The position numbers were made by a program, and so were the translations under genes. Shown here piece after piece: positions 4,619 through 63,725 of a DNA stretch of 64,000 nt (position 1 is its first letter; every line of letters starts with the position of its first letter). The stretch covers positions 372,001 through 436,000 of the forward strand of contig NBAZ01000011.1 of NCBI GenBank assembly GCA_002794735.1, in the 5' to 3' direction. This stretch comes from Pyrrhoderma lamaoense (lineage: Eukaryota > Basidiomycota > Agaricomycetes > Hymenochaetales > Hymenochaetaceae). A model generated the notes under the pieces. That model was given only the letters and a program-made list of their open reading frames with translations, made no database searches and was not told the origin of the DNA.

Positions 4619-4680
4619 CTTGCTCGACTTCGGTCTGAGCGAGGACTCCGGTTTGGGGAATTCCCACTAGCACATTTGTT

Positions 4681-4689
4681 ATATTTATA
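4681..4689 (-). promoter_or_regulatory. Putative TATA box of the laccase gene
   Basis: The minus strand reads CTATAAATAT here, about 65 bp upstream of the laccase ATG. It is the only strong TATA-like element close to that start. Confidence 0.45.
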
Positions 4690-7468: not shown

Positions 7469-8515
7469 ACTGAAGAAAGTAAAAGAGATAGTTGGTTGCC
7501 AAAGAGAAACTTGGCCACTAGTTTTCCATATTTGACCTATGTATGGATGAGTATAATTCGGGATGGAGGACCGTTCGTGAGATGGATAAGCTCTTTTATT
7601 ACCGCATGCTTTTTCGCACTAGCCGAGCCCAAAACGGATCACCGGCGTCAATCCTAAGCGAACATTGAAAAATTAAATCGATGAACTGAGATGGCATCTT
7701 GTAACAAGCTATACAGATCAATTAAGCTGCAGTGTGCTCAGTCGTAAATTTATAATACCGAACTCAGAACTAGATATTCATCAAAAGTTTTCGACTCACG
7801 TTCCATTAATTGTGGCGAGCCAGGGGACTTTATTAAACCTAACCCCAGAAGGTGTAGGTATTGTCCTTTCCAGGCACTGCCTGTGAGTAATTATACAAGG
7901 TTCTGGCGTTTTGCTCATTTGAGAAAAAGACAACTTCAGTGAGACTGATGAAGAAGTATTCATGATAGATGGTTGAGTGTTTGTGCGATTGCATTTTTTG
8001 TAGATTATCTTTCCTTATTAGGTAGGTAAAGCAATTGAATAAAACATTGGAAAAGTATTTACATGAGATTCATTGTCTACTACGTCCAAGTCATAGACAA
8101 CTATTCAGGGCGATACAGGGATCACCTTATCTCCAGATAACGATAAGTATGTACCAAACCTTTTTTCTACTGTTCCTATATACTGCTATACATGTACTGG
8201 CTTCAAATCTGGGCTGCTTTCTGGAAGAAACTACGATCCTCATCGCGATCTAGACTTAAGCTTAAATCGAAAATTTTTAGACGTGATCTTGTGTTACATA
8301 ATATCTACACATCCTGTAACACTATTGTCACGACTGTAACAGCATCAAGTTACAAGTCACATTTAATTACAGTGTGTGACAAGCTCATAACGATGGACTA
8401 ATATAGTGCGTTTGTGAAGGTGGCATATGGTACCATAAAGCAAAGAACATTCATTCATTTTTCATCATCTAGCTGAATACAAGCAACATAATTGCACACT
8501 CTAACGCATGTTGTA
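7469..8515. other. Intergenic region
   Basis: Between the divergent KRE6-like remnant and the coiled-coil gene. AT-rich, with no coherent exon chain on either strand. Confidence 0.5.
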
Positions 8516-11500
8516 ATGCACGAGCCAGATGAACCTTTGCCGCATTCCCAGCACGGCGATGAGTCAACAAATTCTCCTCGGCCAGCTTCCCCTGCAGATT
8601 CTCAGATGACCAACAGTTTGTACCGAGCGAACTCGACAATGGATGAGTTGACCGCTACTCTTGCAAAGGTTTCTCGCGCTCCAACTCCAGGTAGCTTTGC
8701 TAGTGAACTACTCAGTTGTTGCTGTGACAATCCGGATTGTGCCCACCTCCTCGCTGGACTGAACACCAGGCCAAAGTTGAATCTCGCCTAATTTTATGTG
8801 CAGGTAGGACTTTCTTTTCCTGACCAGCGTGTAGTTACAAGCTAACAGTCTAATCTTTTGATAGAGGTAGGACAAGCGTTACTGGAAAAACACGAAGCGT
8901 ATATTCGAAGGCACGGTAATCGTGTTGATTCCGAGGTCCGTGAAGAAACAATATTTCCATTTAAATCATCATTATTCACAAGACATTCTAGTCAGAAGAT
9001 GACTTATCTCGCCCTGAAACTCCGACTGTTCGTCTCCCTTTACAGGACCCAGAATATCGGATCGCTGAGTTAACCAAGGAAAATAAAGCACTTGAGAAAG
9101 TAATACATCGTATATATCAATATGATCTATTGCGGTTATCTGACTTATTGTCATTATATTCTCTAATGCTTTGTCGTAGAAATTGAATACAGCCCTTATC
9201 AATACGGAAGTCGCAGAATCGTCCAGAAAGACCTTACTTAGAGAGCTAGAGAAGCAAGAGAAACTGTCTCTCAACTCACCTTAACCAAGCGAAGTCTACT
9301 GGATGGGAAGTCCGCCTTAGTGCGATTACTCAAGATAATGATGATCTCCGTCAGGAACTGGACGTTGAAAGACAACGAGCGAAAAGTGCGGAAGCTCTCG
9401 TTCAAGCTTTAAGAGAACGTTGTGGTCTGTACAGTTTCTACACTTTATAAATGATTATTCATTCTAGTTATAATTCTAGCTAAGTTACAGTCAGAGAATA
9501 GTCATATTTATGATGAGCTTGAGCAGCAAAAGCAGTCTAGGACTGATCTCTCTCAAGAAATTCTCCGGGATGCACGGGCTCGATTGCAAATGGTCCAGCA
9601 ACAGGTATTATCGTTTTTCCATGTTAAATATTAGTTGTACTAATAATCCTTGTTAGCAATTCGGCCGCACCTTAGTGACCAACTCCCCTGAAGTGAATCA
9701 AGTTATGGAATCACTTGTTGCCGATAATGAGGCTCTGAAAAGAGATGTAGCTGAGTTACAGAATATTCTTACTGAAGCTCGCGAAGATGTGAGGATGATG
9801 CGGGAAGAAGTAGGAGAAGCACGAGTCTCGAACGGGAGTATGAGAACAGTTTCCGTATCGCGCCCTGCTCATGTTCATACATATAGCTGGGCTTCATCAT
9901 TCGGTCAGGCACCTCTATCCCCTGTCTCACGAAGTGCTGGACAATCCACACAACCAACCGATGCAGAAACATGTCCTAACTCTCCTCCGATATCGCGTGC
10001 TGCATCGGAGAGACGTCCTTCTGTGATATACAACCCAAGACCGAGATATCCGCCTTCTCATCTGAATTTTGATCCAGATGCCCAAAGTACGCGATCAGGA
10101 ACACCAGATCTCGCGGAAAAGAAATCTCCTCGAAGGCCACTAATGCTTCTCACTCAAACAAAAGGGGTCCAGACCGATGAAATTAGTTGGTCAAACCTTT
10201 TCGGTCCCGTATTCAGGACACCGACGGATGATGGCTCTTCCGCCACTCCTCCTGTGGATGGCCGATCTGAGTCTTCTTCGATCACAGACTCACAAGCACA
10301 CGCATCGACGATTGCAGCCGTTGTTGATCGAGCCAGTACACTCTTTCAACGACTATCTCAGGCGGATGCTCGCACACTTTCGAATCGCTTGAAACGTCAA
10401 CGCCTTGCGGGCGATGTTTCGCACTTGTCTCATGCAACTGTTTCTTCAATTCTCACTGAGGCACATGCTTTGAGGTCTCACTTTAGAGGAGTTCTTGAGG
10501 ATGAGCGTGCCATAAGCACATGCACAAGACGGGATCTACGTGCACTGCTTTCTCTACTTCGGGAGATTTTCGTAGAACTTGGACAGATTCGCGTTACACT
10601 TAATGATATTATTCTGAATCCCTCATTAGCCCCTAGAATCGCTGAAGCAGCAATGGATTCTTCGAAAGGGTTGGATAATCAAGAACGTGCAAATAAGCAT
10701 GCATCTTCTGCTGCTGGGGGTTGGATGGCACCCCTTTCTAAATTATTTGGAGGTGTGACTACTACAACCCAAGAGACCAAAACAGCCGATCGTCCTGTGA
10801 CTTCCAGTCGTCCAACCTCTGGCCCTCTATTATCTTCGTCAACAGTAAAGCAGAAGCAAGCTAAGCTTGTGCCAAAACTGGGGCCGGCCCTCGCAGCCAC
10901 TACGACGACAGTTAATGTTGAGTTCACTGGTGTCGGTGTGGGTAGATCAACTATCTCGAGTGACTTGACTACCAGTACTGTTGTCAAGCTGAACCGAGAA
11001 CCTGAAAGTTCCTCGACTCCGGTACCTCAAGCATCGTCTTCGAGAGCAGCAGTCATGGATATTTTTGCGGGGCACCGCCAACACCGACTACGGATCCTTG
11101 GGTATTTGTTTCTGGGAGACCTGAGCGCAAATTAAGAAACCCCCAATCTACTATGGATATGCGGGCTGCAACGCTTACAAGATCAGCTATCAAACGCACT
11201 AGCTCCCGCCTTCCCCGCCAGGTCGATGCAGTCGTGGATTTAGATTTGGCAATACAAGATGATGATGAAGACAATGAGGACGCAAATGTTCCGGAGACAC
11301 TCCTTGAACGAACACTTCGTCCCCGTGGTCTATCAGACTCTTCAATACGGTCCTCATTTTTAGCTGATGAGGAAGGACCCCAATCTCCAGCCGTGAATTA
11401 TCCATCCGTCCCGGTATCTACTCCTATTTCTCCTCCCCGGCCCCGTAATAGTCATTCAATACCTGGGAACAGTACCCTTAGACAAGGAGCTTATCCTGGA

Positions 11501-38346: not shown

Positions 38347-40498
38347 ATGGTGCTTACCCTTGCTGAGATATCAAAGCATAACTCAAGATCATCGTGCTGG
38401 GTTATAATAAAAAATAAGGTGTATGATGTGTCCGACTTCCTAACTGTACGTTTTAACTTTCTATCTTTTGTCCAGCCTATTTTATAAAGGCTCGCCAGGA
38501 ACATCCCGGAGGAGCTAAGATCATACTGAAGTATGCCGGAAAGGATGCTACAGAAGCCTATGAACCTATACACCCTCCAGACGCACTTGACAAGAATTTA
38601 CCACCAGAAAAGCATCTTGGAGCTATTGATGAACGATCAGCAGAAGAGATTAAGAAGGCTTCTGAACATAGGAAGAAAACACAAGACGAGCTACGTGTAG
38701 AGAAAGCGCAACGTGAAAAGCCGCCTTTGAATAGAGTTCTAAACCTTAGTGAGATGGAGGTACAGTAAACGAGTGTTTATATCAGCCAACCTTACGATCA
38801 TATAATGTGACTTCTTTAGGCAGTTGCTAAAAAAGTTTTATCATATAAGGCTTGGGCCTACTACTCATCTGCGGGTGATGACGAGATCAGTAAGTGTACT
38901 TATCTTACATATTATATATATATATACATATATATCATCAATGCATTACATATAGCTCACGCCGAGAATATTCGCGCTTTCTCTCGTTTTTTCTTTAACG
39001 CGCGAGTATTACGTCCAATCAGCCAGTGCGATACTAGGACAACGTTACTCGGGTTTTCATCTTCCCTTCCAATATTTGTATCAGGTGCAGCGCTAGCTAA
39101 ACTTGGACATCCGGAGGGGAGGCCAATATCACTCGTGGATGCGGCAGAGCGGGTATCATCCAAATGGTGTCAAGTAACGCTTCACTCTCGGTCGAGGAAA
39201 TTTCAAATGCACGCGTAGATCCCGACCAACCCATCTGGTTCCAACTATATAAACATTCGGACGAAAAAGCTGTTGAGAGAATCAGGGAAATAGAAAGGTT
39301 GGGGTATGGTGCAATATTTTTGACTGTTGATGCACCTGTAGTTGGGCATAGAGAAAGAGATATACATGCACCCTTCGTACTTGCAGATCAGGAGCGTGAG
39401 GCAGAGCGGTTAGCAAGAGGAGACCAACAATCAGTTTTACCCCAAGAACCTGAACCAGACGAAATGGGAGAGGGAACGGGTAAGCTGGGCGTCCATTCCG
39501 TCCATCACTAAACTTTTGAGCTTTGACGTTGCTTTATACTAGCTGGGGTACTCCTTAGTGCTGTCGACAGGGATATGTCATGGAAGAAGGTAAGCTTTTT
39601 TACTCATTCTTTCCTGGTTCAAACCATTGACCTTCGCCTAGACCATCCCCTGGCTTAGGAGTGCGACTAAGCTGCCGATAGTCATCAAAGGTATTCAATG
39701 TGTAGAAGATGCAGTTCTTGCGGCTGAGGCTGGCGTCGATGGTATCCTTATATCTAATCATGGGGGTATGTCTTTCAAAAAATATCCTGAGACATGAAAC
39801 TTATCAGTTTTCACACTAGGCCGACAACTCGATTAGTATGTGTAATTACGCCTTCTTGTTATCCTCTATATTCAATTTTACACCGGCCTTAGCTCTATGC
39901 CTTCCATTGAGGTTCTATATCGTTTGCATAAGCGGCGACCAGATGTATTCTCTAAAGTCGAAGGTATATATCATATTATGAAGATATTTTTACTCGTTAA
40001 TCCAGACTTATATCTTATCAAAACACCAGTCTATATAGATGGAGGCGTAAGACGTGGTACAGGTATGTTATATAGCTTTCTGAATGCTCATGTCTGATCA
40101 ATTCTTTTCCCTACTAGACATACTAAAGGCGCTTTGCCTTGGTGCTAAGGCAGTAGGTATGGGTCGACCCTTCCTTTATGCTCAAGGTGTAAGTGCTTGG
40201 ATAACATTTTTATAAATACAGTGTCTAATCGCTACGATCTGCAATCCTATCAATGTTTTTCTTATCCCTCGATATTACAAATTATAGGCCTACGGAGATG
40301 CGGGTGTTGAGCGCATAATTCGCATACTCGAAACAGAGATCAAACTAGGGATGCGCCTCCTCGGAGCGACGTCATTGCAGGAGCTTGTTCCCGAAATGGT
40401 CGGTATGGTTGCGTTTGACACTAGTTCCCATACTAAAATTATTTTCCACGCAATAGATTGAGCGAGTGGACTGGCAACCTGTAACTGCAAGACTCTGA
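38347..40498 (+). CDS. CYB2: Flavocytochrome b2-type L-lactate dehydrogenase (cyt b5 + FMN domain)
   Basis: Oxidises L-lactate (or a related 2-hydroxy acid) and passes electrons through heme. The start [18 protein letters not shown] leads straight into a cytochrome b5 domain with the heme motif [16 protein letters not shown]. The hinge [15 protein letters not shown] opens the FMN barrel: [94 protein letters not shown] (catalytic His), [16 protein letters not shown] and the C-terminal [12 protein letters not shown]. About nine introns splice in frame. One break sits in the G-run at 39116-39119, where HPEG continues as [13 protein letters not shown] in another frame. No presequence precedes the b5 domain, unlike yeast Cyb2, so mitochondrial targeting is not evident. 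Confidence 0.88.
38908..38936. repeat. TA microsatellite inside a CYB2 intron
   Basis: An ATAT-rich simple repeat within the intron between the cytochrome b5 hinge and the FMN domain. Likely length-variable. Confidence 0.6.
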
Positions 40499-42575: not shown

Positions 42576-45451
42576 ATGATCTCACTTCCACTTGTCCATT
42601 TCAACGATGCGTATACTCTTCGACATAGAGATTTCGATGTATCCCATTTTGCTGGAACCGTAGACGCTATTCGAGAAACATGGCCAAAGAAAAAGGGAAA
42701 ACCAGACGGTCTTTTCTTGTTTAGCGGAGATGTATGCTACTGTCCAAGCTCAGCGACTTCTAAGTGTATTTCTAATTATACCTCAAGATATTTGGGCCAT
42801 CGGTGGAATCCACGTTCACTCGAGGAGAGCATATGGTGAGTTAGGAATAAACATCGCCATATTCTAACTCAGACTAACTGTGAGACAATATATCCATATA
42901 AAGACACCTGTTTTAAATGAGCTTGAGATCGACGCTGCTTGTTTAGGCAATCACGATTTTGACTTTGGTTTACCTCAACTAGAAAAGGTGAATTTCCTTA
43001 CTGCATATCTATTATTGCAGTGACAGAGCAGCTGCTATAAGTTGATTTCACGCTGTAATTTCCCATGGATACTAAGCAACATCATCGATACTGGAACTGC
43101 TAAATCATGGGCTCCTTCATACTGGACAACTGAAAGATGCGGCATAAAAATTGGTGTGATAGCACTAGTGGAGGCTGATTGGGTACCTACTGTTATGAAC
43201 TGGGATACGAGGTGAGAGTTAAAGTCATTGTCCAATGTGAAATTTTTTCTCAATAGGCGAAGACTACAGCATTCCCCTATGTTGGAATGTGCTATGTCAT
43301 TGTCTAAGGAATTGCGTGATCCACAAGGTCCTCACTGCGTAGATATTATAATTGCTCTTACACACTCCAGGCTTCCAAATGTAAGCGTGATACAGAGTAT
43401 TTCCCATGAACTCAGATTCTTACCCTCGGAAAACAGGATATCGAACTAGCTCAACAATGCAATGCACGACCCTCAAAGAGCTGTCCTAATTTAGCCGATT
43501 TGCATGGAATCGATATCATTCTTGGCGGTCACGGCAAGTAATTATCGTACACTTGTATACATACAAAGAGCTTACATTAAGTTGTTTCTAATACAGATCA
43601 TTTCTACTATGTGAGCAAGGGTGTCAGCTATTTACAGATTATGAGTGCGACCCCTTCACGGAATTCGCAATCATGAGCATGTCGAAGAAGTATATGGTTC
43701 AGAAGCAGATGATGGTGTATTAGTGATTAAATCGGGGACCGACTTTCGTGCGTTAATGGCGACTTGTCGTGTGCTCTGAATGATTAAGTTACAAGCTCTA
43801 ACAGATGATCTGTCGTCTATCGAACTGGTGCTAGAGAATTCTTGTCCCGGAAGTATTCGACGAAAACTCATCAAAGAAGTTCGAGGTTAGCCTAGGCTCT
43901 CTCTCCTTGATGATGGATCTTAGAATCTGATATGGAAAAAATAGGCAGAAGACATTGGATAAATGGCCACTCCCCTTCTTCTGAAATAGTTCGGAGAACA
44001 ACAGATGAAGTACTCAAGAATGTCGACAAAATGCTCCATGTACCGATTTGTCATACTTTAACAACTTGGGATATCCGCTCCGAAGTTGTCCGAACGCGAG
44101 AGACAGCTTTTGGCAATCTGGTTGCGGACTCCTTGTTTGGGGGCTACGCAGACGTGAGTTGAGCACCGATTGTTATGTTTTACATTTATTATAAATCAAA
44201 TCCCTAGTTACTCGAAGAATGGACGCATCGCGATCTTGGAGAGAGAGCGAAAGGCAATGAACTCGTTGATGGGGTGCTTATTTGTGCTGGAAGTTTAAGA
44301 ACAGATACAATATATTCTCCAGGTCTGTATATAACAACTTTTATGATTAAATTTACTTAATGAATAACGTAGGTGTTATCTCTGCATACGACGTCATCAA
44401 GATTTTACCCTTTGATGACCCGATCGTGGTCATTGATATTTCTGGTGATGCCTTATGGGATGCTATAGAATGTTCTTTAAGCCTTTATCCAGCTCTTGAG
44501 GGGTGGGTTATCGTTGATAATTAGATTTGAACTTGAGAACTCATCTATATGGTGAAACTTGTTCTTCTCCTTTCGATAGTCGCTTTCCCGTAGTCGCTGG
44601 CATGCAAATCACCTGGAACTCTTCAGCCCCACCTATGCACCGACTTCGAGCTGTCGAGTTTTTAAATACGTCTTGGAACGAATTAGACGAACTTCACAGA
44701 GACGGGAAATCAAAGAAAGCTATGTCTGAGCCGAATGATTTGCATAAGGGGAATATACACGTGGCCCAAAAGAACCTGAAGACTTTATATACTGGTATGC
44801 AACGTAAGGTGTATGGTGTACCAAATATCAAGGGCTCTATGGATGGAGAAGCCCTTTCCTTAACTGTCTTACGAGATAAACCTCGGAGCCGAGAGACTCT
44901 AGACAGAAACAAAGTTTGTGAGTATGGATTGTTTTGGGGTGTAAAGTGTTGTGCTGATAACTATACTATGTTAACACACGAATGTCGTTTTAGATCGGAT
45001 TGTTACCGCTGAGTATATGGCCGAAGGCTACGATGGTTTTCTACCCCTCAAACAAGGTCGGTGTATTATCGGCCACGAAAATGGGCTAATGATGTAAGGA
45101 CTCTTGTTACTTTTGCGTCGAGAAAATTGACATCGCTTTTTTATGAAAAATTTTACTGAATAATTGAATCTTTTCAGGTGCGAAATCGTTCGCAGATATC
45201 TCATTTCCGGTAACATTTTGAGTGTGAAAGACATTCAGATATTGGCAAATTTCGAAAGTATAAATAATGAACCTCTAAAGAATATTCAAGACGAAAGTGA
45301 CTTTCATACCAACTATCTTGAAGATAATCTGACTATTAAGGGGGAACTGTTGACTAACATAAATATAGGAGAATCATCCCTAGGGGTAGTAACACCTCTA
45401 CTCGACGGACGTATCCGGGATGTTGCGCCTTCGGCCGATGTATCTAGCTAG
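42576..45451 (+). CDS. 5'-nucleotidase / UshA-family metallophosphoesterase
   Basis: Hydrolyses phosphate from nucleotides or related esters using two metal ions. The ATG at 42576 gives MISLPLVHFNDAYTLRHRDF, the first metal motif (HFND). FLFSGDV then supplies the second Asp, and after introns come LGNHDFDFGLPQLEK (the GNHD signature), IIIALTHSRL and ILGGHDHFYYVSKGV. The C-terminal 5'-nucleotidase domain includes ETAFGNLVADSLFGGYAD, DPIVVIDISGDALWDAIE (usual G-D-x-L-W) and AEYMAEGYDGFLPL, followed by a long tail ending PSADVSS-stop. No signal peptide or membrane anchor was seen, so it appears cytosolic. One intron uses a GC-AG donor near 43536. Exon borders between 43610 and 43990 are uncertain. 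Substrate is not predictable, but the surrounding genes favour nucleotides. Confidence 0.8.
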
Positions 45452-46121
45452 TTATAGTGTGACATGTTATACTACTACTGTATCTTACCAATGGTATACT
45501 CTATTGCACCAATATCGCGTGACGTAACGTGTACTAAGTAACGCATCTTTTTCAAAAACTAGATGCGCTAGAATTCTTCGGTGGATTTACAGCCATTAGT
45601 AATTTTCATGTACCTCCGGTGACTATATAATGCATACCTCTTGAGAGAAGTACAGTTGGCCATTTCAGTTCTCGTCAACTTTCTCCCGTGAGTATGAAAA
45701 CAGAAACAACAACAGGTTACCAAAGAACGTCAAGTCATTTCCGATTCGGAGTTCGTCTTTCTCCAAACTTCTCAGGGAAGTAGAAATAGTAGCTTCATTT
45801 ATTGACACTCGTTGCTAGCTCTCGGCTTAGGGCTTGGAGCTCAGCAGTAAGAACGCCATATACATTTCGCATAATTTTTGGTGGAGTTGGAAAGAATAAA
45901 TTATTGTTCTGATGGTACATGCGGTTTATTTCGTCATTGCACTAGGATAGTTAGAATTATTTACACTCGACTTATTATAATTGATGAGCAATAGGAGTTG
46001 CGATTTATGGGAACCATCTTCATTGCCGGTAGACTACAATGCGTAAAATACAGAGTCCATATCTCTTAAATAGTAACAAATTCAACGAAGAAGATAGATT
46101 TGTATGCTAGACGTCCCTGGG
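45452..46121. other. Convergent intergenic region
   Basis: 3' flanks of the nucleotidase and adenylosuccinate synthetase genes. AT-rich; no gene seen. Confidence 0.5.
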
Positions 46122-47981
46122 TTAGGTGCTCTTATGCTTTACAACAATCATATCGTTACGGCTCGGCCCATTACCTACCCAACCAATAGGAACACCGACA
46201 TAATTTTCAATAAATCTGACATAGTTTTGAGCACCTAGAAAAATGAGTTCAGCTTAAACGTACAAAATGCGTGAAAATTTCGCTTACCTATCGGAAGATC
46301 CTCCCAAATTTTGCACGAGGAGATGGGCGTTAGCCATCCAGGGAAGGTCACGTACTGTGCTTCAACTCGAGCATAAACATCAAGATCGCTTGGGATGTAA
46401 TCGATTTCCACTCCATCAAGCTTATAGGAAACGCAAACCTTAATCTCAGGTAGTCCATCGAGAACATCAAGTTTCGTAAGGTTCATATGGGTATATCCCG
46501 AGATTTTAGCTCCATATTTGACCACTACCAGGTCTAGCCATCCACAGCGACGTTTTCTCCCTGTTGTTACACCCCATTCATTACCTACACGTTGAAGGTA
46601 TTCCCCAGTTTCCTATGAAATTTTGGTCATTATTAACAGAACGGGACAATGAAACACGCGAATTCACATCAAAAAGTTCTGTGGGAAATCCTCCTGAGCC
46701 GACACGGATTGGGTAGCTGATAGTAAGATGTATAAAGAATTGAAAGTAGTTGATATCGTGACTTAGACTAACCTTCTGACTACAAATTACGAGTTAGTCT
46801 TTTTGTTAGTATCCCAATAAAAGCCGTATATGCTCACCAACTCCTACAACATTCCCTATTTTTGTAGGGGGGATGCCAAGCCCTGTGCAAACACCCCCAA
46901 TTGTTGTGTTACTACTTGTGACAAATGGGTATGACCCAAGATCGATATCTAGCATCAGTGCATTGGCCCCTTCTACTAGAATCTTTTTCCCGGAATCGAG
47001 AGCGTTATGTATGAATTTGATGCCGTCAACAACGTAAGGGCGGAAGCGCTCAGCTAGCACCTAAAATAGGGCTTCTTTGTCAGGATTTCTTTTTCGGATT
47101 AAGTATGGGGTGCGAAAGTTACCTTGTAACGCTGGATCTCACCCTCAACATCATACTCAAATCTTCCAAACCTTTTGAAGTGTGTTTCTATTAAAGCTCG
47201 GAACTTTTCCTCGAAATCTGGGGCATATAGGTGATGAACTCGAAGCCCGGACCTCGCCGCTTTGTCTGAGTAACAAGGACCGATACCACGTCCTGTCGTT
47301 CCTACCCTTTATTGACAATATACTTAGCAATAAAACGGAATCTGATGCGATGATCATACTTCTTGCTTCCAAGCTCTACCTCGCGCAATCCATCCACAAT
47401 CATGTGTGAGTCAAATATCAGCTGGGCCCGGTCACTTACGAACAGACGGCCAGTGCAATCAAGCCCCTTAGCTTCAAGCCCTTCTAGCTCCTGGAAGAAG
47501 CTAGGCACATGAACGACTACACCGTTTCCAATGAAGCTTGTGCAATTCTGATTGACTAATCCAGAAGGTAAAAGATGGAAGAAGAATGACGTTCTAAGGT
47601 GCCACCTTGTCAGCAAACTCAAACTACACTAATTTGAAAATATAGATCTTACGATTTGTTTCCATTGAAGTTTTCTACTACAACTGTGTGTCCAGCGTTA
47701 TTTCCCCCAGCACATCGAGCACAAACATCTGCCTGCTGGCCTGCGGAACATAATCAATCAATTTATTTGATATTCTAGTTATTTTGGACTACACGTACTT
47801 AAGTGATCCGCGAGCTTTCCTTTTCCCTCGTCACCTTTACATAGGAAGTAAATAATTGGGAAACGCAGCACGGTGTTATATACCTACCCCATTGACCCCC
47901 AAGGACAACACAGACTTTCGAACTTTGAACGAGCTGTTCTGAATCTGTGACTCCAGTTAATGATGAAGAAAGTACAGCCAT
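46122..47981 (-). CDS. ADE12: Adenylosuccinate synthetase
   Basis: Joins IMP and aspartate with GTP hydrolysis, the first committed step to AMP. The ATG at 47979-47981 gives [17 protein letters not shown]. The GTP/IMP loop spans an intron: [18 protein letters not shown]. Next come [78 protein letters not shown] with [30 protein letters not shown] and the C-terminal [24 protein letters not shown]. The aspartate-binding loop, normally (K)AYTTRVG, reads [15 protein letters not shown] at about 46690-46720. The splice phase just before it (donor near 46841) is off by one, probably a lost base. All other motifs are canonical. It neighbours RNR2 and APT1, so the region is rich in purine genes. Confidence 0.9.
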
Positions 47982-48903: not shown

Positions 48904-50382
48904 TCAGAAATCCTCTTCAAGGGAGCTAATATGTTTGTTCATTAGTCGACTTAGGTCCAACTGGAATGCGTTCAAGGTCAGGTTACGTACAATAATTTGC
49001 CGTTTAGCGTCTTTTTCTCATTACTTATATTCACGTTCGCTTTCTTGTAATCCGATACTCTCCTCTCAAAGAAATTTGTCTTACCCTGAAGGGAGCTGGC
49101 CAAGAAATTCAGTAAATTCCATCACGGTATTACGCAGGTTCACAACATACATATTTTCCATAAAGGGGAATGGATTAGCTGAGTTCCATACTTTCTCCGA
49201 ACCCAGCGCAACGAGTAGATGGTCTGCAACGAACTCAATATATTGACACATGAGGTCCGCGTTCATCCCTATGAGTGCTACCGGAAGAGCATCTGAAGAT
49301 GAGGGGAAAAATTCTTAATTAGTATGTTGTATACTAAGGGTAGTATCCTTGACTAACCGGTCAAGAACTCTTTTTCGATCGATACCGCTTCTACTATGAT
49401 ATTACGGACAGTGTCGGGGTGCGGGCGTTTTCTCAGGTGACTAAAAAGCAGGCATGCAAAGTCGGTATGCATACCTAAAAGAATATGCTCTGTCAGCTAA
49501 ATTCGCCTCTCGTAATTAGAAGAAATGTGCCTCCCTTCATCTCGGGAAATGAGTTCATTTGAAAATGAAAGTCCAGGCATAAGATTACGCTTCTTCAACC
49601 AGAAGATGGAAGCGAAGGATCCAGAGAAGAAGATTCCTTCTACCGCAGCAAAAGCTACAAGACGGATAGCAAAACTTGAACGACGGTCCGATATCCACTT
49701 GAGTGCCCATTCTGCCTTCCGCTTTACACAAGGTATAGTCTCTATGGCATTAAAGAGGTGATCTCTTCTGGCGGGATCCTTGATGTAGGTGTCAATGAGG
49801 AGAGAATACGTCTCCGAGTGGATGTTTTCCATCATTATCTGGAAACCATAGAAGCAGCGGGCTTCCGCTACTTGTATTTCACTTGAAAAGCGGTCCAGAA
49901 GGTTTTCATTGACAATACCGTCAGAGGCCGCGAAGAAAGCTAATACATGGGAGATGAAATGCCGTTCGTCATCGTTCAAACGGTTCGTCCAATCTGGAAT
50001 ATCCCATTGGAGGTCTATTTCCTCAGCCGTCCAGAACGATGCCTCAGCTTTCTTGTACATATTCCATAACTGTTTCCCTCTATCAGACGAAATACTATTG
50101 AGGGGTCAAATATCTGGCTTACATCAGAGTACTGAATAGGGAAGAGAACGAATCGTTTCTTTGATTCTCTCAATAAAGGTTCTTCATCTTGGGTTGGATC
50201 AATATACAAGAACCTCAGCATGAAGTGGCATACTTACTGTCCGGAAGATCAATCTCGCCAACATACTTTACCTGCTCTTTCCAAGAGTCTTCCTTGTCCG
50301 ATTTTAATTCTGTAGATTCTTGTAAGACGTTCGGAGCAACTTTATTAGAAGTGGGCTGAGATGAATTCGTTGTAAGAGTCAT
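48904..50382 (-). CDS. RNR2: Ribonucleotide reductase small (radical) subunit
   Basis: Provides the tyrosyl radical and di-iron centre for making dNTPs; partner of the large subunit R1, cytosolic. The ATG at 50380-50382 gives [20 protein letters not shown]. The iron and radical region is canonical: [48 protein letters not shown] with the radical Tyr, and [20 protein letters not shown]. After an intron come [18 protein letters not shown] and [20 protein letters not shown]. The last introns resolve to [19 protein letters not shown] and a terminal exon spelling FSLEEDF-stop, the R1-binding tail. The donor of the intron after SRDEG (49533-49534) reads GG instead of GT; one lost T from GTGAGG would explain it. 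Complete and probably functional. Confidence 0.93.
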
Positions 50383-51241: not shown

Positions 51242-52674
51242 ATGAACCTCTCCGTTATCGACCTTGATATTTTCCTATCCAATCCTCACGACTCTGAAAT
51301 TGTGAGACAAGAATGTGATAAAGTAGATGGCCATTATTCTACCATATCTTCAGAGCTAATCGAATTTCTCTTTCAGGCAGTGGAGGCACTTATAAGTGCT
51401 GGTGCACTTGTCCTCCATGATTCTCGTGTTTCCGAATCAGACAATGCAGCTTTTTTAGATTTGATGGAAGACTACTTCGCTCAGCCGATGTCAGACTTAC
51501 AGAAGGATGTGCGTCCGGAGTTACAATACACTGTTGGAGTTACGCTCGAAAACACAGAAAGGCCTAAATGCGCAGTTCATGAACCTTGCCAACGTGTGAT
51601 AGAGCAACTCGCACCTGAAGAAAGACCGATAGATGTATCAGGACATTCTCCGGACCCGAAATCAAGATTTTTTTGGGCTATGACTGAAACTCCCCCGTAT
51701 GAATAGCTTTTGAAACAATATCCTCGATAAAGTTACTCACGAAACTAGGTACAAGACGCAATTCCCAACCCTAAATGCGGAAAACGTGATTCCCCAGGCG
51801 GAAGATCTCAGAAAGAGATGGACACCAGCTATGCAAACTTGGGGAACATACATGAAGAATGCGTAAGCTGGGAAAGCATTCTCTTTACCCTAATTACTAA
51901 CGAAATGATCTTAGTGTCGAAGGCCTTGCAAAGATGGCAGCTATTGGCTTCGGGCTGCCCGAAGATTTCTTTACTAATGCCGGAAAATACGGGTGAGTCA
52001 CGATTATTATTATAAACTTCAACATCAGGGCCACTCACGCCTTGTCTAGTCCACACCGTCTGGCCCCGACATCTTCTGATTTGGTCAAGTATGGGCAGAA
52101 AGATCAAATTCTTGCGGGGTTTCATACGGATCTTAACTTCTTGACAATTCATGGAAGATCGCGTTACCCTGGTCTGAACATTTGGGCACGCAATACAGGA
52201 AAACGTATAGCAGTGAAGATCCCGGAAGGTAATTTTCTTCTAGTTCAGGCTGGTAAACAGCTTGAGCACATGACTGGTGGCCTCGTTAAGGCCGGATATC
52301 ATGAAGTCGTGGTTACTGAGGAGACCCTTAAGGTATAATAAAATAGCAATAGGTCCCCTTTATCTCCAAATAACAGGACTTATGTTCGAATACAGGTTTT
52401 AGAAGTACGCAAGCGTGATTTTCCAGAAAGGCCACTTTGTCGTATATCGTCGACCTTTTTCTGGCACCTGTCGTCGGATTACGACCTCGCTCCGATACCA
52501 TCACTAGTTTCTAGGAAGGCCAAATATGGAGAAAATTTAGATGTTTCTGAATATCCAAAGATGAAAGTAGGACATCAAGTCCAAAAGTAAGTTTATCAAA
52601 CTCGGGCTCGGTATCAGTATTGAATCCATTTTCTTATTTTCAGCGAGCTTAAGCACATAGCATTGATGGCATGA
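51242..52674 (+). CDS. Isopenicillin-N-synthase-like 2OG-Fe(II) oxygenase family protein
   Basis: Non-heme iron oxidase/oxygenase fold; substrate unknown. The ATG at 51242 gives MNLSVIDLDIFLSNPHDSEI. The N-terminal DIOX_N part contains VEALISAGALVLHDSRV, and the middle has RFFWAMTETPPYKTQFPTLN across an intron. The catalytic core reads AGFHTDLNFLTIHGRSRYPG, giving the H-x-D iron ligands. The distal His follows in AGKQLEHMTGGLVKAGYHEV. It ends with FFWHLSSDYDLAPIP and ELKHIALMA-stop. Six or so introns splice in frame without repair, including a tidy GC/GTAAG border near 51860. This is a widely conserved fungal clade of the family. Its position beside APT1 and the kinase-PurC-HisG gene makes an oxidative tailoring role possible, but that is inference. 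Confidence 0.8.
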
Positions 52675-53983: not shown

Positions 53984-56383
53984 TCAAATACTCTTAGACT
54001 TGTAAATTCCAACAGTCAAGTCCCCTTTATCTTTAATAACACGCCAAATTTCAAGTCCATTTTCTACGAGGGTCCTTCCAGATGAGACTACTGCATCACA
54101 GAGAAGCTGACCACCTTTGTTGTCGTTTGCTAGATAGCTTTCCGAAGACCCTGAGACATGTTGTAACGAATACAATTCTTCGCTGATTCCAAGTCCGCTC
54201 AGATACTCTTTTACCATAACGGGGTGCTCGACAATAATTCGCGCAGGCTTATCCTTGGTCCATTGATTCACATCAATGTTTGCTCCAATACGAGAAATTA
54301 AAGCTAATTTGATGTCGGGATCAGGAATCGCGTATAGTAACACCGATGTCGGAGGCAGGTTGTCTATGACAGAGTTGTATGAGATTGTAAAGTCTATCAT
54401 ACCCTCCTCCATTGCATGAGGCATATCCTTGGGTTTCATTGGGACGAAAACGACATTGTGGGTATCGAAGTAGTGCTTGAACTTTTGATTGTCTACCACT
54501 TCAGACTTGTATCTTAGGCACCTCCCAGAAGGGCGATGTATCCTAATCCCAAGATTGGAGAGAGCGAAGGAATCGCTTTTGTCTGCGTACTTTGAACAAG
54601 TGATTCCCACTCTGAACGTCTTTAGTGAGATCGACGCATTAGACAACCGGTCCTGGGATATGAGACGATGGTAAAGACTTTTGTATCTAGGTAGTAAGGT
54701 GAATCGTGTGTCTGAAAGAATGCGTTGCGCCACTAAGCCATAGGGCTCGTCGGTCGTGAGCATTTCGCTCGTGTGGAAACTATGAGACGATAGATACGAT
54801 CCGAGGAGCTCATTCAGCTGCACCCACTTTGTTGTAATCTTATCTTTGGCAGAGCTACCCCCGGCTCTCCAAATATCTTTATCAAAAGCACTCCCGTCCA
54901 CTCCTTGGCCCAAAGGAGGTGCCCGCCATTTGATACGCATGCAATCCTGATTGATCTCACTCCAAGCCTCCGTACCGTCCTTATCCACAAGAATGCAACC
55001 ATCTTGAACTTCAAGTCCAATCTCGTTCAAGTACCACTGTATAGTGAGATAAGTCCGAAGTGTTATTATCTGTGCATTCTCGACATGCTGGAAAGGGGGT
55101 ACAAGATCTTCTGGGACACATTTATCTCCCACTGGCTTTGCTCGTTTGGTGAGGTACTCAGCATAGAATGGCTCTTTTCCCACGCTCTTCTCCATTAAAT
55201 GATAGAATGGATGATCCGCTACATTCACTCCCTGATAAGTATGATTTGGGTTGCGCCAGTCGAATCGGACGTATGGACCTCCACGATACTCTCCAGTTTC
55301 TAGACAGGCTGCAGTAGATTCGCGCATCCCATAGAAAGAGTGTTTATCTGTGCCTAAACACATCGCTTTGTAAACAGTTTCAATTGGAGTAGTTTTTGTT
55401 GCCCGAACGTAGACTATCCCATGCTGGTTGATGCCTTCGTAGGTATGATCTACACCAGAGCGATGGAACATTTCGAGAAAAAGACGAGATCCTTGCGCAC
55501 GAATAGACGAAAGATGGGGTATCTCAGCGGTAGCCTGCATTGAATGCGAGTATATTGTAGGTTTCAAGACGACAAACAGATGATCCGCGAAATAATCCGT
55601 TAGGGGAGTTTCAACTCGATAAACTTGTTTTGATTCGCCCTCAATCACAAGACGAAGAGCAAGAGGAATCTTCTTCTCAGAGACGGTGAGGAATGTGGGT
55701 GAGAATTTGCGATCATAAGAGTTAACGATGTTGTAGATGAGACTAGGATCGCGCAAACATTGTTCATGAACATCAGCAGGTTTGAATAATGACTTTTCGT
55801 GGCATTCCTTCTGCACTATCTCCGACAGTCGTTTGGTGTAGTCTACTCCCTCAACTGGCTCAAATGTGTTCGCTAGCTCGTAGACATGTTCCAAGGTGAG
55901 CGTTTGAAGCTTGAGTTCCTCTACTATACTCAATACGTCTGGTCTTTCGATATAGGAGATGATCTCAGCAACAGTATCGCTGATTGATTTTCCATCGTCT
56001 GTCCGTACAATAGGATACCCGAAAAAAGCAGCCAGTTCCTTAAACCGCGCACGGAAGTAGAAAAGGGCCTTTTCGCTCTCCCATTCATCGGATTTTGGTC
56101 TAGATGCTATCCTATGTTGAAGACTCTTAATGTCGGCATCGAGCACAATACGCAGTATGCGGCGCTGCTCCCCGTCTACTGTGTAAACAGTCTTGGGTTG
56201 CTTACGATCATCAGATGGGAGCTGGAGAGTATAGACGTCCAGAGCTTTCACATCGACGTCATGCTGTGGATCAGTGTCCCCGCGAGTAAAACAAAGGTAT
56301 CCTGCATCGTTAACAGCACGACAGAGGGTTGTTTTTCCCGTAGCATCGTTTCCGTGAAGAACTATAGTGACTGGATCTGCCAT
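53984..56383 (-). CDS. Three-domain fusion: nucleoside/nucleotide kinase-like + SAICAR synthetase-like + ATP-phosphoribosyltransferase (HisG)-like
   Basis: A single uninterrupted 799-residue frame in an otherwise intron-rich region. The start is the ATG at 56381-56383 (MADPVTIVLHGNDATGKTTL). Residues 1-150 form a P-loop kinase-like domain, with Walker A GNDATGKT at 11-18. Residues about 240-510 look like PurC/SAICAR synthetase: SKQVYRVETPLTDYFADHLF, TPIETVYKAMCLGTDKH, then the family's acidic nucleotide-binding segment DGCILVDKDG at 461-470 and SEINQDCMRIKW at 475-486. Residues about 588-799 look like HisG: GMIDFTISYNSVIDN at 661, PARIIVEHPVMVKEYLSG at 713, then the PRPP-type loop LLCDAVVSSGRTLVENGLEI at 760-779. 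The nearest known architecture is Cns3 of the Cordyceps cordycepin/pentostatin system (kinase plus HisG); Streptomyces pentostatin synthesis uses separate HisG-like (PenA) and PurC-like (PenC) proteins. Catalytic competence of each domain is not proven here. Confidence 0.82.
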   Translation of the reverse strand: MADPVTIVLHGNDATGKTTLCRAVNDAGYLCFTRGDTDPQHDVDVKALDVYTLQLPSDDRKQPKTVYTVDGEQRRILRIVLDADIKSLQHRIASRPKSDEWESEKALFYFRARFKELAAFFGYPIVRTDDGKSISDTVAEIISYIERPDVLSIVEELKLQTLTLEHVYELANTFEPVEGVDYTKRLSEIVQKECHEKSLFKPADVHEQCLRDPSLIYNIVNSYDRKFSPTFLTVSEKKIPLALRLVIEGESKQVYRVETPLTDYFADHLFVVLKPTIYSHSMQATAEIPHLSSIRAQGSRLFLEMFHRSGVDHTYEGINQHGIVYVRATKTTPIETVYKAMCLGTDKHSFYGMRESTAACLETGEYRGGPYVRFDWRNPNHTYQGVNVADHPFYHLMEKSVGKEPFYAEYLTKRAKPVGDKCVPEDLVPPFQHVENAQIITLRTYLTIQWYLNEIGLEVQDGCILVDKDGTEAWSEINQDCMRIKWRAPPLGQGVDGSAFDKDIWRAGGSSAKDKITTKWVQLNELLGSYLSSHSFHTSEMLTTDEPYGLVAQRILSDTRFTLLPRYKSLYHRLISQDRLSNASISLKTFRVGITCSKYADKSDSFALSNLGIRIHRPSGRCLRYKSEVVDNQKFKHYFDTHNVVFVPMKPKDMPHAMEEGMIDFTISYNSVIDNLPPTSVLLYAIPDPDIKLALISRIGANIDVNQWTKDKPARIIVEHPVMVKEYLSGLGISEELYSLQHVSGSSESYLANDNKGGQLLCDAVVSSGRTLVENGLEIWRVIKDKGDLTVGIYKSKSI

Positions 56384-57193: not shown

Positions 57194-59414
57194 ATGAGTA
57201 GGCCTCAGTCAGTCAAGGAGGACTCAGGTACTCAAGTTGCCAGTCAAACAGTACCCGTCAATAAAGTAATCGAACCAGAACGATTTGACACGATCTCAGT
57301 GACAAGAAGGATTCTCATCCTTGTCAGGTATGCCCCATCTCGAATACCCCAACTTTCTTACAGGCTAACCGCCTAAGCCAGTCTAGGACTATGCTCCTTC
57401 TTGTAAGTAGCCAGACTTCATGCAAGTAAACTCTATAGTAACCCCCTTCAAGATACGCTATTGAACAGACGATCGTTGCGACATCTGTTGATACTATCGC
57501 ATCGAAGCTCGCAATAACAGGCTCTATAACTGTATGCTACTTCAAATCTTATTGATACCTCAAACTAACACCGTAAAAATCATCACACAGTGGATAACTA
57601 ATTCGTATCTCCTTACTACAACTGCGTTCCAACCCATCGTTGGTCGTATCACGGTAAGCAAGGTTACAAAGGTGCATCCGTGCTCGGGAACTAACGCTGC
57701 TAAAATAGGATGTTGTCGGTAATAAGGCTCTTCTTCTAGGAGAGCTATGGTATTCATCATCGGGAATGTTATTGCCGGCAGTGGAAATAGTCTCACTCAG
57801 CTTGTTGCTGGTAGATTGATTAGTGGAGTTGGGGGTGAGATTATCAACCTATCCAAAATGTATGCTCAGTAGTTGACTTGATACATTTGAAGGTGCCGGG
57901 CTCTTGTCTATCTCATGCATCATCATCTCAGGTATGCATTATTAACCGTTGTATGCGCTTGTATAATTACAATATCCCATAGATATGACCCATGAACGTC
58001 AACGAGGTTCATATCTTAATTTCATAAATGTTGTATTCGTTGTAGCCGATGCCATTGGGCCTCTTATTGGAGCATCGTTCTCTGAAAAAGCATCCTGGAG
58101 ATGGATCTTCTTCTTCAACATTCCTTTTGGTCCCTTCAGTAAGGAGTTTCTCTACTTTTTATACTACGATCAGTTATCTCATTACTAAATCTCTCTAGTT
58201 ACTCTCATACTATTATTCGTTCTTCACACAACCCCTCCTAGCTACAAAATCACTTCTTTCAAGCAGGCAGCGACAAAAATTGATCTATGGGGAATGTTTA
58301 CTCTTGTATCTTCCCTCACACTCCTTGTTATAGCTTTAAACTTGGGAGGAAACTCCTTCGCTTGGGACTCAAGTACCGTTATAGGGCTTTTCGTGGGTGC
58401 CTTTGTCTCTTTCGTGATTTTTGTCGCCGTGGAGAGATGGGTTGCTATCAACCCTGTTATTCCAGTATTTCTGTTGACTCGCTGGGATAGAAGGAACGTT
58501 CCAATCATGGTAGTAGCAAGAACTCTATTATTTTTCCATTTGTTTTCTACGGTAAGGCAGAGATACAACAAAAAATTGAATTTTGCTTACCTGACCTCTG
58601 CAGACGTTTTATGTTCCCATCTTCCTCGGAGCTGTAAAGCAATTATCCCCGATCGTCTGCGGTGCCCTAATTACACCATTCCTGATTATGGCGGCTATAG
58701 CAAGTACTATAACGAATCACGTTGCATCGAAGTTTGGTCACATCCGACCCCTTTTCATGGCATCGCTGGTGATCCTTCCTGTTGGGATGGGTCTTATGTC
58801 AACACTAGACTCAAGTGCTTCAATAGGAAAAGTAGTTGGATACTCACTAATTTGTGGTGTTGGATTTGGATCAGTGAGTTTTCGAAATAACTATGATGAT
58901 GATTTTGGACCTCAACTGTTACATATCAGGGAACTCAAATCTCCCTTGTCATTGCTCAAAATGGGGTTGAGGTTGAATATCTTCCGACGGTCACCGCTTT
59001 TGTTAGCTCTGCCCCCAATCTCGGTGGTGTTCTGGGCGTTACAGTTATTGGAGCCATCATTACAAGTCGAGTCAAATCTGAGTTGAAAAGGCTTGCTCCT
59101 GAATTGGCCTCTAGTGTATGTAATCATTCTTTGGGAACAACCGTGCTTTTGTCTGATCGAAGACACCATTTTAGCTCAATTACAATGACCCGTTATCTCT
59201 AACGGGATCTGGTGTCAGTCAAGAAGATGTAGCTTTCGCCTTTTCAAAAGGTTTTAGGGATGGTTTCCTCACACTTGCCGGTATTGCAGCATTCCAGTTT
59301 GTGATCTGCCTCTTCTTGCGCAGGATTGTCTTAGATGATGGATCAAAGTGGCATGCGGCGGAGGAATCTGAAAAAGCCATCGACGACAAGGCACAAAAAC
59401 AGGCAGTTGTATGA
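57194..59414 (+). CDS. MFS drug exporter, DHA2 (14-spanner) family
   Basis: Proton-coupled efflux of drugs or metabolites at the plasma membrane. The ATG at 57194 gives a 40-residue cytosolic tail, then RRILILVSLGLCSFL and the motif YAIEQTIVATSVDTIASKL (D1-like). WITNSYLLTTTAFQPIVGR, IGNVIAGSGNSLTQLVAGRL and MTHERQRGSYLNFINVVFVV follow, with DAIGPLIGASFSEKASWRWI as motif C. Later exons give LDSSASIGKVVGYSLICGVG and VTAFVSSAPNLGGVLGVTVI. It ends KAQKQAVV-stop after about ten introns. One break near 57736 (KALLL, then MVFIIGN) needs a lost base. It lies between the fusion gene and the HD gene, a plausible exporter for a nucleoside product; the Cordyceps system uses an ABC transporter instead. 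Confidence 0.82.
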
Positions 59415-59877
59415 CAAATGTCGGATTGACTATATTGGGTTTTTGAGTTGAATAACAAGCAAGTCGACTTACAAGTACATGTAGTTGAATATTATAGTAC
59501 GTTTACTTCACGAGCGACAATGATTGGTGACATGACGGCTTAGTAATAAACGGTGTTATATTCGTCGATCGTCGCTTTTTCATGAAAATTTCTCGGCGAT
59601 TCTGAAACGATCACTGAAATAAGTAGCTTTAATACCTCGTTTCTTTCCACTGAGATTTCGGACTCTTGTTAAAACTCTTCTCATATTAGTTAATATATGC
59701 TAAGGCAAATAGTGTGATATCTATATCGTCAAATACTGTTATCAAACTTGCAGTGCGGGCGCGCTCAGGCAACCTTATATAAGAAGCCAAGCCAAAGAAC
59801 AGAGTGGTATACAACCTTTTCCAACTTGAATCCTTGTTTCATAATCTTCTCTCCGTACGGTCAAAGAGTGAATCGAG
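59415..59877. other. Intergenic region
   Basis: AT-rich spacer between same-strand genes, including the promoter of the HD gene. No gene seen. Confidence 0.5.
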
Positions 59878-61456: not shown

Positions 61457-62917
61457 TCAAACTATGTCCTGCTTGAGAACATAACGATAGCGGACGTGGT
61501 TCGTCCTAACGTTCTCTACCGCTGTCTTTACATCCTTCATAGGGAGTTCGTGAATCCTTGAGTGAAGTGTGCGTCACTGCACTGATGAAAAGTATTTTGA
61601 TACAGAGAAAACTTACCATGGCTTTATTCCTTTCTTTGCAGCGAGATCTAGCATTTCGAGGGCCTCTTTCTTTGAACCAATATGGGATCCACCAAAAAAA
61701 CATGCATTACTAGCAAAAATCATGGCCTTGATACCAGGAAAGTTGCTATCTGGAAGTCCAACGCTGATCATCTTTCCGTGGACATCAAGCATCCTCAAAG
61801 ATGTCGACCTTAGCAGATTCACGAATGTATAAGATCCATACTCACGAGAGATATTCAGCAAAAGGAAAATTTTCATCAGCTTGGTCACGAGTCGAGACAA
61901 TGAGATCAAGAGTCATTGCATAGTTTTTTTCAAAGCCCTTTTCCTGAGTGATAACGACGTGGTCCGCGCCCATCTTCTTGATGTCGTCCCCTTGTTCTGT
62001 TGATGAGTGAACGCATATACCTCAGCTCCAAGAGCTTTGGCAAACATAACTGCGTAATGCCCTATTTACACGATCCCTGATGTTAATCATTATTGACGAG
62101 AGTCTGTATACCACACACCAATCCACCAATTCCGATTATGCCAACCTTCTTCCCGGGACCAGCACCATTACGCTTTAGTGGAGAATATACTGTTAGTCCC
62201 CCACATAGCATGGAACAGGCATCTGCAGATGATATGGAGTCTGGAATAGGGAACACAAATTGTTCATGAGCAATGATCCCTGTTGAATAGCCTCCTTGAG
62301 TACGGATGCCGTCCGGATGCTTGGAGTTCTTTGCCCCTGGAGGTCAGCCAGAATGCATTAGTCGTCACAAGTGGAACATACGTACGTATGTGTCAACCTG
62401 TTTAGGACAGTAGTTTTCGTTGTCACTTTTGCAATATTTACAGCTATAGCACGAAGCGACTTGAGCCCCGACTCCAACGCGATCACCAGCCTTTATATCT
62501 TTAACCTTTGAGCCTACACGTACTGCAGTCCCAGCAATTTCATGGCTTTTGTAAATAATGTCAGTGAGAAAGCGAGGATGTGCAGGCTCATGTCTCCCGT
62601 ACCCAACTACGAGAGGAGTTTCGATAGCTCCCCAGCCGGATGTAATGGTGTGAACATCTGAACCACAAACACTAAGGTGTTATAGAGGTTAAGACAAGAG
62701 TGGCAATAACACGACTAAGGACTGTACCTACCCACAATGAGTGATAGCCACTTCAACGTCAGTCTCTTCCCACTTCTTCGACTTGAACTCGATGATGCTG
62801 AAGTCGTTCCACTTGTTTGCATCTAGCAAAGTGCTAGATAGTTAGACAATATGAGAGGAAGAATCGACGTTTTTACATACCAGTGACTGCATAACCTTTG
62901 AATGTTTTTTGAGACAT
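61457..62917 (-). CDS. NADP-dependent alcohol dehydrogenase, cinnamyl alcohol dehydrogenase (MDR) type
   Basis: Zinc medium-chain dehydrogenase that interconverts aldehydes and alcohols. The ATG at 62915-62917 gives MSQKTFKGYAVTD. The catalytic zinc region is CGVCGSDVHTITSGWG then VVGHEIAGTAVRVGSKV across an intron. The structural zinc Cys cluster is ASCYSCKYCKSDNENYCPKQ. The cofactor-binding part is GKKVGIIGIGGLGHYAVMFA. It continues LDVHGKMISVGLPDSNFPG, FFGGSHIGSKKEALEMLDLA and ends NHVRYRYVLKQDIV-stop. One G appears lost in the run at 61988-61991, just before DDIKKMGADHVV. The length is usual (about 350 residues). Convergent with the HD gene. It could be a tailoring reductase of the neighbouring pathway or an unrelated aryl-alcohol enzyme. 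Confidence 0.87.
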
Positions 62918-63725
62918 CTTGAAAGGGGATATCAGCGTGAAAAGAAAGGTCAAAAGCAGATAGTATATGAGAAGATATACTCCCGTGGACTCCGCAGACG
63001 GGTTTGAAATGAGTACATCAATGACGTAGTACTAATAGTAGAGCCAGCCCTCCTCGATGGCAGGAAATGGCACCTTTTGATACAAGAGTCATAATCATAG
63101 CATAGAAGAAGCTCAAAGTAGCTATTGCGAGATATTTCTCTCTTACCGAGATTAACCAACCAACAAGATAGTTATTGTTCCTCAGAGCAAGTACGACTCG
63201 AGTTACAAGAAAGGGAGTTAGCCATGTAGTCAACCAGTATACCGAGGCATGTTGCATGTATCTATTGAAGATATGCTATTGGCGAGCTGGAGTTTTGACA
63301 TTGTGCTTCATTAATTTTGATTCTTGACACATTGTACTCTCAATTCAAGAGAATTGCGGTGCATCCTTCATTGTGACGTCGCGTTCGTCACATTACCTAT
63401 TAATAGTCTTCTATGAGGCATGTGATCGCGTTACCTCTCATTTCTGCGATTCTAAGGTAATCTATAAGAAAGCTGGTGATATCATTATAGCCCGTGGTCC
63501 GAAGGTATACACTAGTTAAGCATGCGTGATACGGCGTCACTATGTAAGTGAATAAAGAGGGTGAAATATGATAAGGTATAAAAGAAAGATATGCGATCCA
63601 AAAAAAGCAAACAAATATATGATAAGTGTTCCGATGATTGAAGTGAGAAATATGGTCGTTATAAGCAAGGGAAGGGAAAAACAATGTTTGTGATGAGATG
63701 GGATGATATGTCAGTGTTGCTTTAT
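62918..63725. other. Intergenic region
   Basis: About 800 bp between the alcohol dehydrogenase start and the next minus-strand stop. No gene seen. Confidence 0.5.

What the first reader, a model, noticed from the sequence alone, without database searches (positions are those of the whole stretch)
53984..56383. Kinase-PurC-HisG three-domain protein: candidate pentostatin/coformycin-type synthase in a basidiomycete
Seen: one intact 799-residue frame with a P-loop (GNDATGKT, residues 11-18), a SAICAR-synthetase-like middle and an ATP-phosphoribosyltransferase-like end with an SSGRTLVENGL loop. Known: HisG-like PenA and PurC-like PenC build the 1,3-diazepine purine analogue pentostatin in Streptomyces, and Cns3 of Cordyceps militaris (N-terminal nucleoside kinase, C-terminal HisG) underlies linked cordycepin/pentostatin formation. 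Inference: this gene performs the same chemistry, with all three activities on one chain. I am not aware of a described basidiomycete locus of this kind.
Basis: partly seen in the sequence, partly recalled or inferred. Interest (0 to 1): 0.94.

Follow-up and report, generated by a model that had tools for sequence, protein, structure and literature searches.

The report
Fungal pentostatin-type synthase of Cns3 family
A fungus, probably of a wood-rotting mushroom family, carries an intact gene of the same family as the Cordyceps gene linked to the drug pentostatin, beside spare copies of adenine-nucleotide enzymes, and longer relatives suggest how the drug's seven-membered ring could be made.

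The parts
53984..56383 (-). Cns3-family gene, 799 aa, no introns
55934..56383 (-). residues 1-150: P-loop kinase domain
   Evidence: G11, G16, K17 invariant in 17 of 17 rows
54791..55666 (-). residues 240-531: SAICAR-synthetase (PurC) fold with family-specific site residues
53987..54625 (-). residues 587-799: short-form HisG (ATP phosphoribosyltransferase) fold with PRPP loop
53091..53770 (+). APRT-like phosphoribosyltransferase; second genomic copy on C4 (57% and 54% identity in two pieces)
   Evidence: approximate gene model
51242..52586 (+). 2OG-Fe(II) oxygenase-like gene
   Evidence: approximate gene model
48991..50382 (-). ribonucleotide reductase small subunit; second genomic copy on C4
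   Evidence: approximate gene model
46066..47981 (-). adenylosuccinate synthetase, divergent second copy (other on C8); 95% to Pyrrhoderma noxium P0242
   Evidence: approximate gene model
42576..45451 (+). 5'-nucleotidase-like gene (another family member on C8)
   Evidence: approximate gene model
57391..59496 (+). MFS (TRI12-like) transporter
   Evidence: approximate gene model
61457..63031 (-). zinc alcohol-dehydrogenase-like gene; possible but untested reductase for the last step
   Evidence: approximate gene model

Best explanation
The gene is a basidiomycete member of the Cns3 family and makes the 1,3-diazepine (pentostatin/coformycin-type) base of an adenine nucleoside analogue, as part of a purine-nucleoside gene cluster. 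Proposed route: (1) the HisG domain joins PRPP to N1 of an adenine nucleotide (ATP, dATP or AMP-type); (2) host HIS4-type (HisE/HisI) and HIS6 (HisA) enzymes turn it into the PRFAR-type ketose, in which C1 of the added ribose is a CH2 next to the amide; (3) the PurC domain activates the carboxamide with ATP and C1 attacks it, closing a seven-membered ring, after which the rest of the added sugar leaves; (4) a dehydrogenase reduces the ketone, and a nucleotidase and transporter finish and export the product. The kinase domain supplies or re-phosphorylates the (deoxy)nucleoside substrate. Shown: domains, folds, conserved motifs, family, neighbours, and that relatives carry HisA-HisI-HisE on the same chain. 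Inferred: every reaction, the place of PurC after HisA, and the product.
For: Fold matches for all three domains. 54% identity to C. militaris CCM_04438, named 'Bifunctional cordycepin biosyn...' in the listing; Cns3 is reported to give pentostatin (PMC8719641 and PMC12648386, passages). The 12 three-domain rows form one clade, 100/100, in a 26-row tree. 39 of 39 long relatives tested (of the 64 of >= 1100 aa among the 120 listed) match HisA, HisI and HisG and 34 match HisE at E <= 0.01; the order PurC-HisA-HisI-HisE-HisG was read in four (Pfam gave no PurC hit for P0039 and no kinase hit for P0035). Woesearchaeota L023: adjacent PurC, HisG and HisA-HisI-HisE genes, hisD not found in that MAG. 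[quoted passage not shown] coli hisG (PMC13055916, discussion part 1 and passages). The host has SAICAR-synthetase, HisG and PRA-CH genes elsewhere. Neighbouring second copies of ADSS, RNR2 and APRT.
Against: No metabolite or enzyme data. Domain roles of Cns3 are themselves unsettled: a review credits the HisG domain with turning adenosine into pentostatin and says cordycepin was made in yeast with cns1-cns2; another calls the function of PenC unclear and suggests an amide- or C-N-bond-forming step, not C-C ring closure. No PenB-like short-chain dehydrogenase was seen among the fragments and models scanned. Pfam and NCBIfam scores are weak. Pyrrhoderma noxium has the ADSS copy (95%) but no Cns3-like protein named for it is in the list (120 of 138 shown), so the tie between the gene and its neighbours may be loose. 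A test for a HisE remnant in the Cns3 linker was inconclusive. HIS6 of the host was not searched.
Confidence: 0.65

Rival explanations
1. The protein makes a different modified purine or C-nucleoside by similar opening steps (HisG plus PurC), not a pentostatin/coformycin-type diazepine.
For: hisG homologues also sit in the pyrazomycin cluster (PMC13055916), and a search with the SAICAR-synthetase homologue adeA gathered pentostatin, coformycin, adechlorin and pyrazomycin clusters. The neighbours here include ADSS, RNR2, APRT and a 2OG oxygenase, which the papers seen do not give for cns.
Against: The closest characterised relative is Cns3, tied to pentostatin; the six-domain relatives carry HisA, which a C-nucleoside route does not obviously need (inference).
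Confidence: 0.2
2. The main role is the cordycepin-type one: the kinase domain phosphorylates adenosine at 3'-OH and the rest protects or regulates.
For: Kinase role reported for Cns3 (PMC8719641, passages).
Against: No cns1/cns2-type pair was recognised; the HD gene is the only copy found and of the widespread type. The kinase part also aligns in viral and rotifer relatives. Most invariant columns of the 17-row alignment lie in the PurC and HisG parts.
Confidence: 0.07
3. It is a fused primary-metabolism enzyme (histidine/purine).
For: HisG and PurC folds.
Against: The genome has separate HisG (C22), SAICAR-synthetase (C2) and PRA-CH (C4) genes; scores are far below the hisG/purC equivalog cut-offs; PurC signature residues are changed.
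Confidence: 0.04
4. It is a decaying, non-functional gene.
For: An intron of the neighbouring RNR2 copy has no canonical donor by eye, which could mean decay or an assembly error in the region.
Against: Intact frame, motifs present, 88% identical full-length relative.
Confidence: 0.04

Closest known systems
Cns3 of Cordyceps militaris (CCM_04438, P0012; that this locus tag is Cns3 is recalled, supported by the listing's name)
   Same: Same three domains in the same order, 54% identity, same clade.
   Different: Piece between PurC and HisG measured by my pattern is 17 residues here against 89-90 in 6 of 7 named ascomycete members matched (Periconia 19); in a sub-clade with Gymnopus (100/99); neighbours differ from the cns genes as described in the papers seen.
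Six-domain proteins (Fadolivirus P0039, bdelloid rotifers such as Adineta vaga P0086, metagenomic P0035/P0036)
   Same: Kinase, PurC and HisG parts align at 33-40% identity.
   Different: They carry HisA-HisI-HisE between PurC and HisG; the window protein does not.
PenA/PenC (pentostatin) and AdeC/AdeA/AdeK (adechlorin) of actinomycetes
   Same: HisG-like plus SAICAR-synthetase-like (plus HisA-like AdeK) used for a diazepine nucleoside (passages of PMC12648386 and PMC13055916).
   Different: Separate genes in bacteria; their sequences were not compared here.
Woesearchaeota operon L023
   Same: PurC-like, HisG and HisA-HisI-HisE genes; its PurC shares DWRNP, DKDxWR, K/GT and DxC with the family.
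   Different: Split genes; PurC 25% identical in the best segment.

Membership tests
Cns3 family (kinase-PurC-HisG) | Three domains in the order kinase, PurC, HisG | tested here: met
Cns3 family (kinase-PurC-HisG) | Same clade as C. militaris Cns3 | tested here: met
   12 three-domain rows of 26, 100/100
Cns3 family (kinase-PurC-HisG) | Makes pentostatin | not testable with these tools
   needs LC-MS or enzymology
cordycepin (cns) gene cluster | cns1 oxidoreductase, cns2 HD phosphohydrolase and cns4 transporter alongside | tested here: inconclusive
   Window has an ADH, an HD gene of widespread type and an MFS pump; Cns1/2/4 sequences were not at hand
HisG (TIGR00070 equivalog) | Score at or above 75.75 bits | tested here: not met
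   30.9 bits
HisG fold | Short-form ATP phosphoribosyltransferase fold with PRPP loop | tested here: met
PurC (TIGR00081 equivalog) | Score at or above 189.9 bits | tested here: not met
   13.6 bits
PurC fold | SAICAR-synthetase fold | tested here: met
pentostatin/coformycin pathway | PenB-like short-chain dehydrogenase for the last reduction | tested here: inconclusive
   none among 10 fragments and 7 crude gene models scanned with Pfam, all within 38-64 kb; 1-38 kb was not scanned with Pfam

The most novel reading that the evidence does not exclude
The six-domain proteins of giant viruses and bdelloid rotifers are single-chain synthases of 1,3-diazepine nucleosides (adenosine-deaminase inhibitors); the fungal cordycepin/pentostatin gene, including this one, descends from such a chain by loss of HisA-HisI-HisE, its host's histidine enzymes taking over those steps. 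This would fix the unsettled role of PenC as ring closure on a PRFAR-type intermediate.
Probability: 0.42. Interest if true: 0.88.

Novelty: new variant of a known kind. Interest (0 to 1): 0.68.

Why it matters
Pentostatin is a clinical adenosine-deaminase inhibitor whose ring-forming step is not settled (function of PenC 'remains unclear', PMC12648386). A family in which the needed histidine-pathway enzymes are fused to the PurC-like domain, or lie in adjacent genes with it, gives a concrete and testable pathway. The basidiomycete locus adds a neighbourhood with second copies of ADSS, RNR small subunit and APRT, which suggests deoxy-type products, precursor supply or self-protection (inference). 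It also corrects the two-domain picture of Cns3 given in the review seen.

Tried and rejected
HisE remnant in the ascomycete linker: it lines up by eye, but hhalign gave score 14.2 (E 0.034) against up to 18.6 in 100 column shuffles: inconclusive, not claimed. HD gene as a Cns2 counterpart: dropped, since all 5 pieces found in the genome lie on C11 and the named relatives in the list (120 of 1354 shown) are HD-domain/5'-deoxynucleotidase proteins of many basidiomycetes. The own-genome search with PF13023 found nothing, not even the window gene, probably because of short exons, so family searches by exon can miss copies. IMG/VR scans with P0039, P0115, A1 and A2 gave no confirmed locus, so viral gene context was not seen. 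A first gene-model run with poor parameters was replaced; all models stay crude. A first host ADE1/HIS1 alignment used the wrong strand and was redone. A HisI expression was badly made and matched 0 of 64, so the order check built on it also gave 0 of 64 and is void; Pfam counts are used instead. The quick 36-row tree was replaced by the careful 26-row one (26 of the 73 rows of A3); the long branches P0105 and P0070 were among the rows left out. A structure match that VIA-align does not list is no evidence of absence. Searches of print (rows shown of papers found): (20 of 29; 5 of 5; 20 of 78; 20 of 257; 12 of 65; 0; 8 of 4,050; 2 of 2; 8 of 392), 94 (8 of 161). In what was shown I saw no six-domain family, no viral or rotifer link to pentostatin and no basidiomycete cns3; most subscription papers are not held, Xia 2017 and Ren 2020 among those I did not read.

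Full report
1. What is there. The stretch 53984-56383 holds one intact 799-residue frame on the minus strand with ATG at 56383; the plus strand has many stops. It has no introns, whereas the crude models of its neighbours have several each. Base shuffles of the gene gave no open frame above 217 codons in 2000 trials. One match to it was found in the 30.65 Mb assembly, itself.

3. Sites. The P-loop residues G11, G16 and K17, G769, T771, N775 and L777 of the HisG loop and many PurC residues are invariant in 17 of 17 rows. Compared with pieces of the host's own ADE1, the PurC part keeps the E-x-x-D-x-x-R and D-K positions, but reads K where ADE1 has R and GT where ADE1 seems to have GS (that spot spans an intron in ADE1), and DGCIL where ADE1 has DTKFEFG; the PurC of an archaeal HisG-HisA-HisI-HisE operon shows the same K, GT and DxC. 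I read this as a PurC turned to another substrate; that is inference.

4. Family. The search gave 138 proteins at E <= 0.001, 120 listed: metagenomic P0002 (88%), Gymnopus androsaceus (two), Mycena metata, many ascomycetes, among them C. militaris CCM_04438 (54%). That CCM_04438 is Cns3 is recalled; the listing names it 'Bifunctional cordycepin biosyn...'. It matches SAICAR_synt over 245-519 at 5.2e-6, above cut-off, while its HisG match is weak (0.018). A review describes Cns3 as kinase plus HisG (PMC8719641, passages); another paper lists a SAICAR synthase and ATP phosphoribosyltransferases as separate unigenes of the cordycepin cluster (PMC6006141, passages).

5. Six-domain relatives. 64 of the 120 listed are >= 1100 aa. 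Of these I scanned 39: HisA 39, HisI 39, HisG 39, HisE 34, SAICAR 19, at E <= 0.01. The PurC motif EGESK is present in 62 of 64 and DWRNP in 61 of 64. In P0039 (Fadolivirus), P0105 (name cut at 'Bodo'), P0086 (Adineta vaga, longest contig 16.9 Mb) and P0035 the recognised domains come in the order PurC, HisA, HisI, HisE, HisG, with kinase hits first where present; Pfam listed no PurC hit for P0039 and no kinase hit for P0035, though both align there. The viral label rests on the names of P0039, P0070 ('uncultured virus') and perhaps P0105; four scans of IMG/VR gave no locus.

6. Tree. In the careful tree (26 of 73 rows) the 12 three-domain rows form one clade (100/100) whose sister is the six-domain pair P0035/P0036 of unknown origin (100/100); Fadolivirus groups with two rotifers (98/98). 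The root was placed by my choice on five rows of about 910-1000 aa of unknown origin; two of these were scanned and have no recognisable HisA-HisI-HisE. Loss of these domains in the fungal line is the simplest reading because the sister and the next groups have six domains, but it depends on that root.

7. An archaeal operon. The genome-collection scan gave one confirmed locus out of 78 stretches: L023 in a Woesearchaeota MAG. There PurC (7830-8792), HisG (8785-9456) and a HisA-HisI-HisE chain (9453-10649) overlap or abut. HisD was not found in that MAG, of unknown completeness. So the same five activities lie together in a setting that is probably not histidine synthesis.

8. Surroundings. 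Crude gene models and Pfam give, around the gene: 5'-nucleotidase, adenylosuccinate synthetase, RNR small subunit, 2OG oxygenase, APRT, then MFS, HD hydrolase and zinc ADH. Further family members lie elsewhere for RNR2 (C4), ADSS (C8), APRT (C4) and the 5'-nucleotidase (C8). The window ADSS is 95% to Pyrrhoderma noxium and 62-67% to the other listed proteins, bar one at 56%, which puts the host in or near Hymenochaetaceae. The HD gene is the only copy found and of the widespread type, so I leave it out of the cluster claim. That no Cns3-like protein named for P. noxium is in the list is a point against a tight link, unless it is unannotated there.

9. How it most likely works. The HisG domain adds PRPP to N1 of an adenine nucleotide; HisE/HisI and HisA steps (a PRA-CH gene is present on C4; HIS6 was not searched) give a PRFAR-type ketose; the PurC domain closes the seven-membered ring by ATP-dependent activation of the amide; sugar loss, reduction, dephosphorylation and export follow. 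That ribose C1 enters the diazepine is recalled from older labelling work, not from a call. In actinomycetes the opening steps of adechlorin are said to be analogous to histidine synthesis, starting from a chlorinated AMP, with AdeK keeping only HisA activity and AdeC and AdeL not rescuing hisG (PMC13055916, discussion part 1). A review instead suggests an amide or C-N bond step for PenC.

10. Verdict. The new content is the six-domain relatives, the archaeal operon and the purine-enzyme neighbourhood. Function remains untested.

Noticed in passing
window 49481-49550 (minus): By eye, one intron of the RNR small-subunit copy lacks a canonical GT donor; could be unusual splicing, decay or an assembly error.
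   Followed up: no
P0073, P0078, P0086, P0088, P0089, P0091, P0092: Bdelloid rotifers (Rotaria, Adineta) carry the long form, although animals lack histidine synthesis (recalled); the two put in the careful tree group with Fadolivirus, suggesting acquisition from a virus or its host.
   Followed up: partly
L023 7830-10649: Woesearchaeota PurC, HisG, HisA-HisI-HisE genes in a row, with a Nudix/NrtR-type regulator gene just downstream and hisD not found.
   Followed up: partly
P0107, P0111, P0113, P0115, P0120: A form of about 910-1000 aa with PurC and HisG and a middle not recognised by Pfam as HisA/HisI/HisE in the two members scanned (P0113, P0115).
   Followed up: partly
window 38347-40461 (plus): FMN-dependent dehydrogenase-like gene (Pfam on its last piece); the cytochrome-b5-like start is a label by eye.
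   Followed up: no
window 1949-4869 (minus): Multicopper-oxidase (laccase-like) gene model, label by eye.
   Followed up: no
P0012 about 610-665: Conserved linker before HisG in most named ascomycete members matched, absent in the window protein; HisE-remnant idea not significant.
   Followed up: yes
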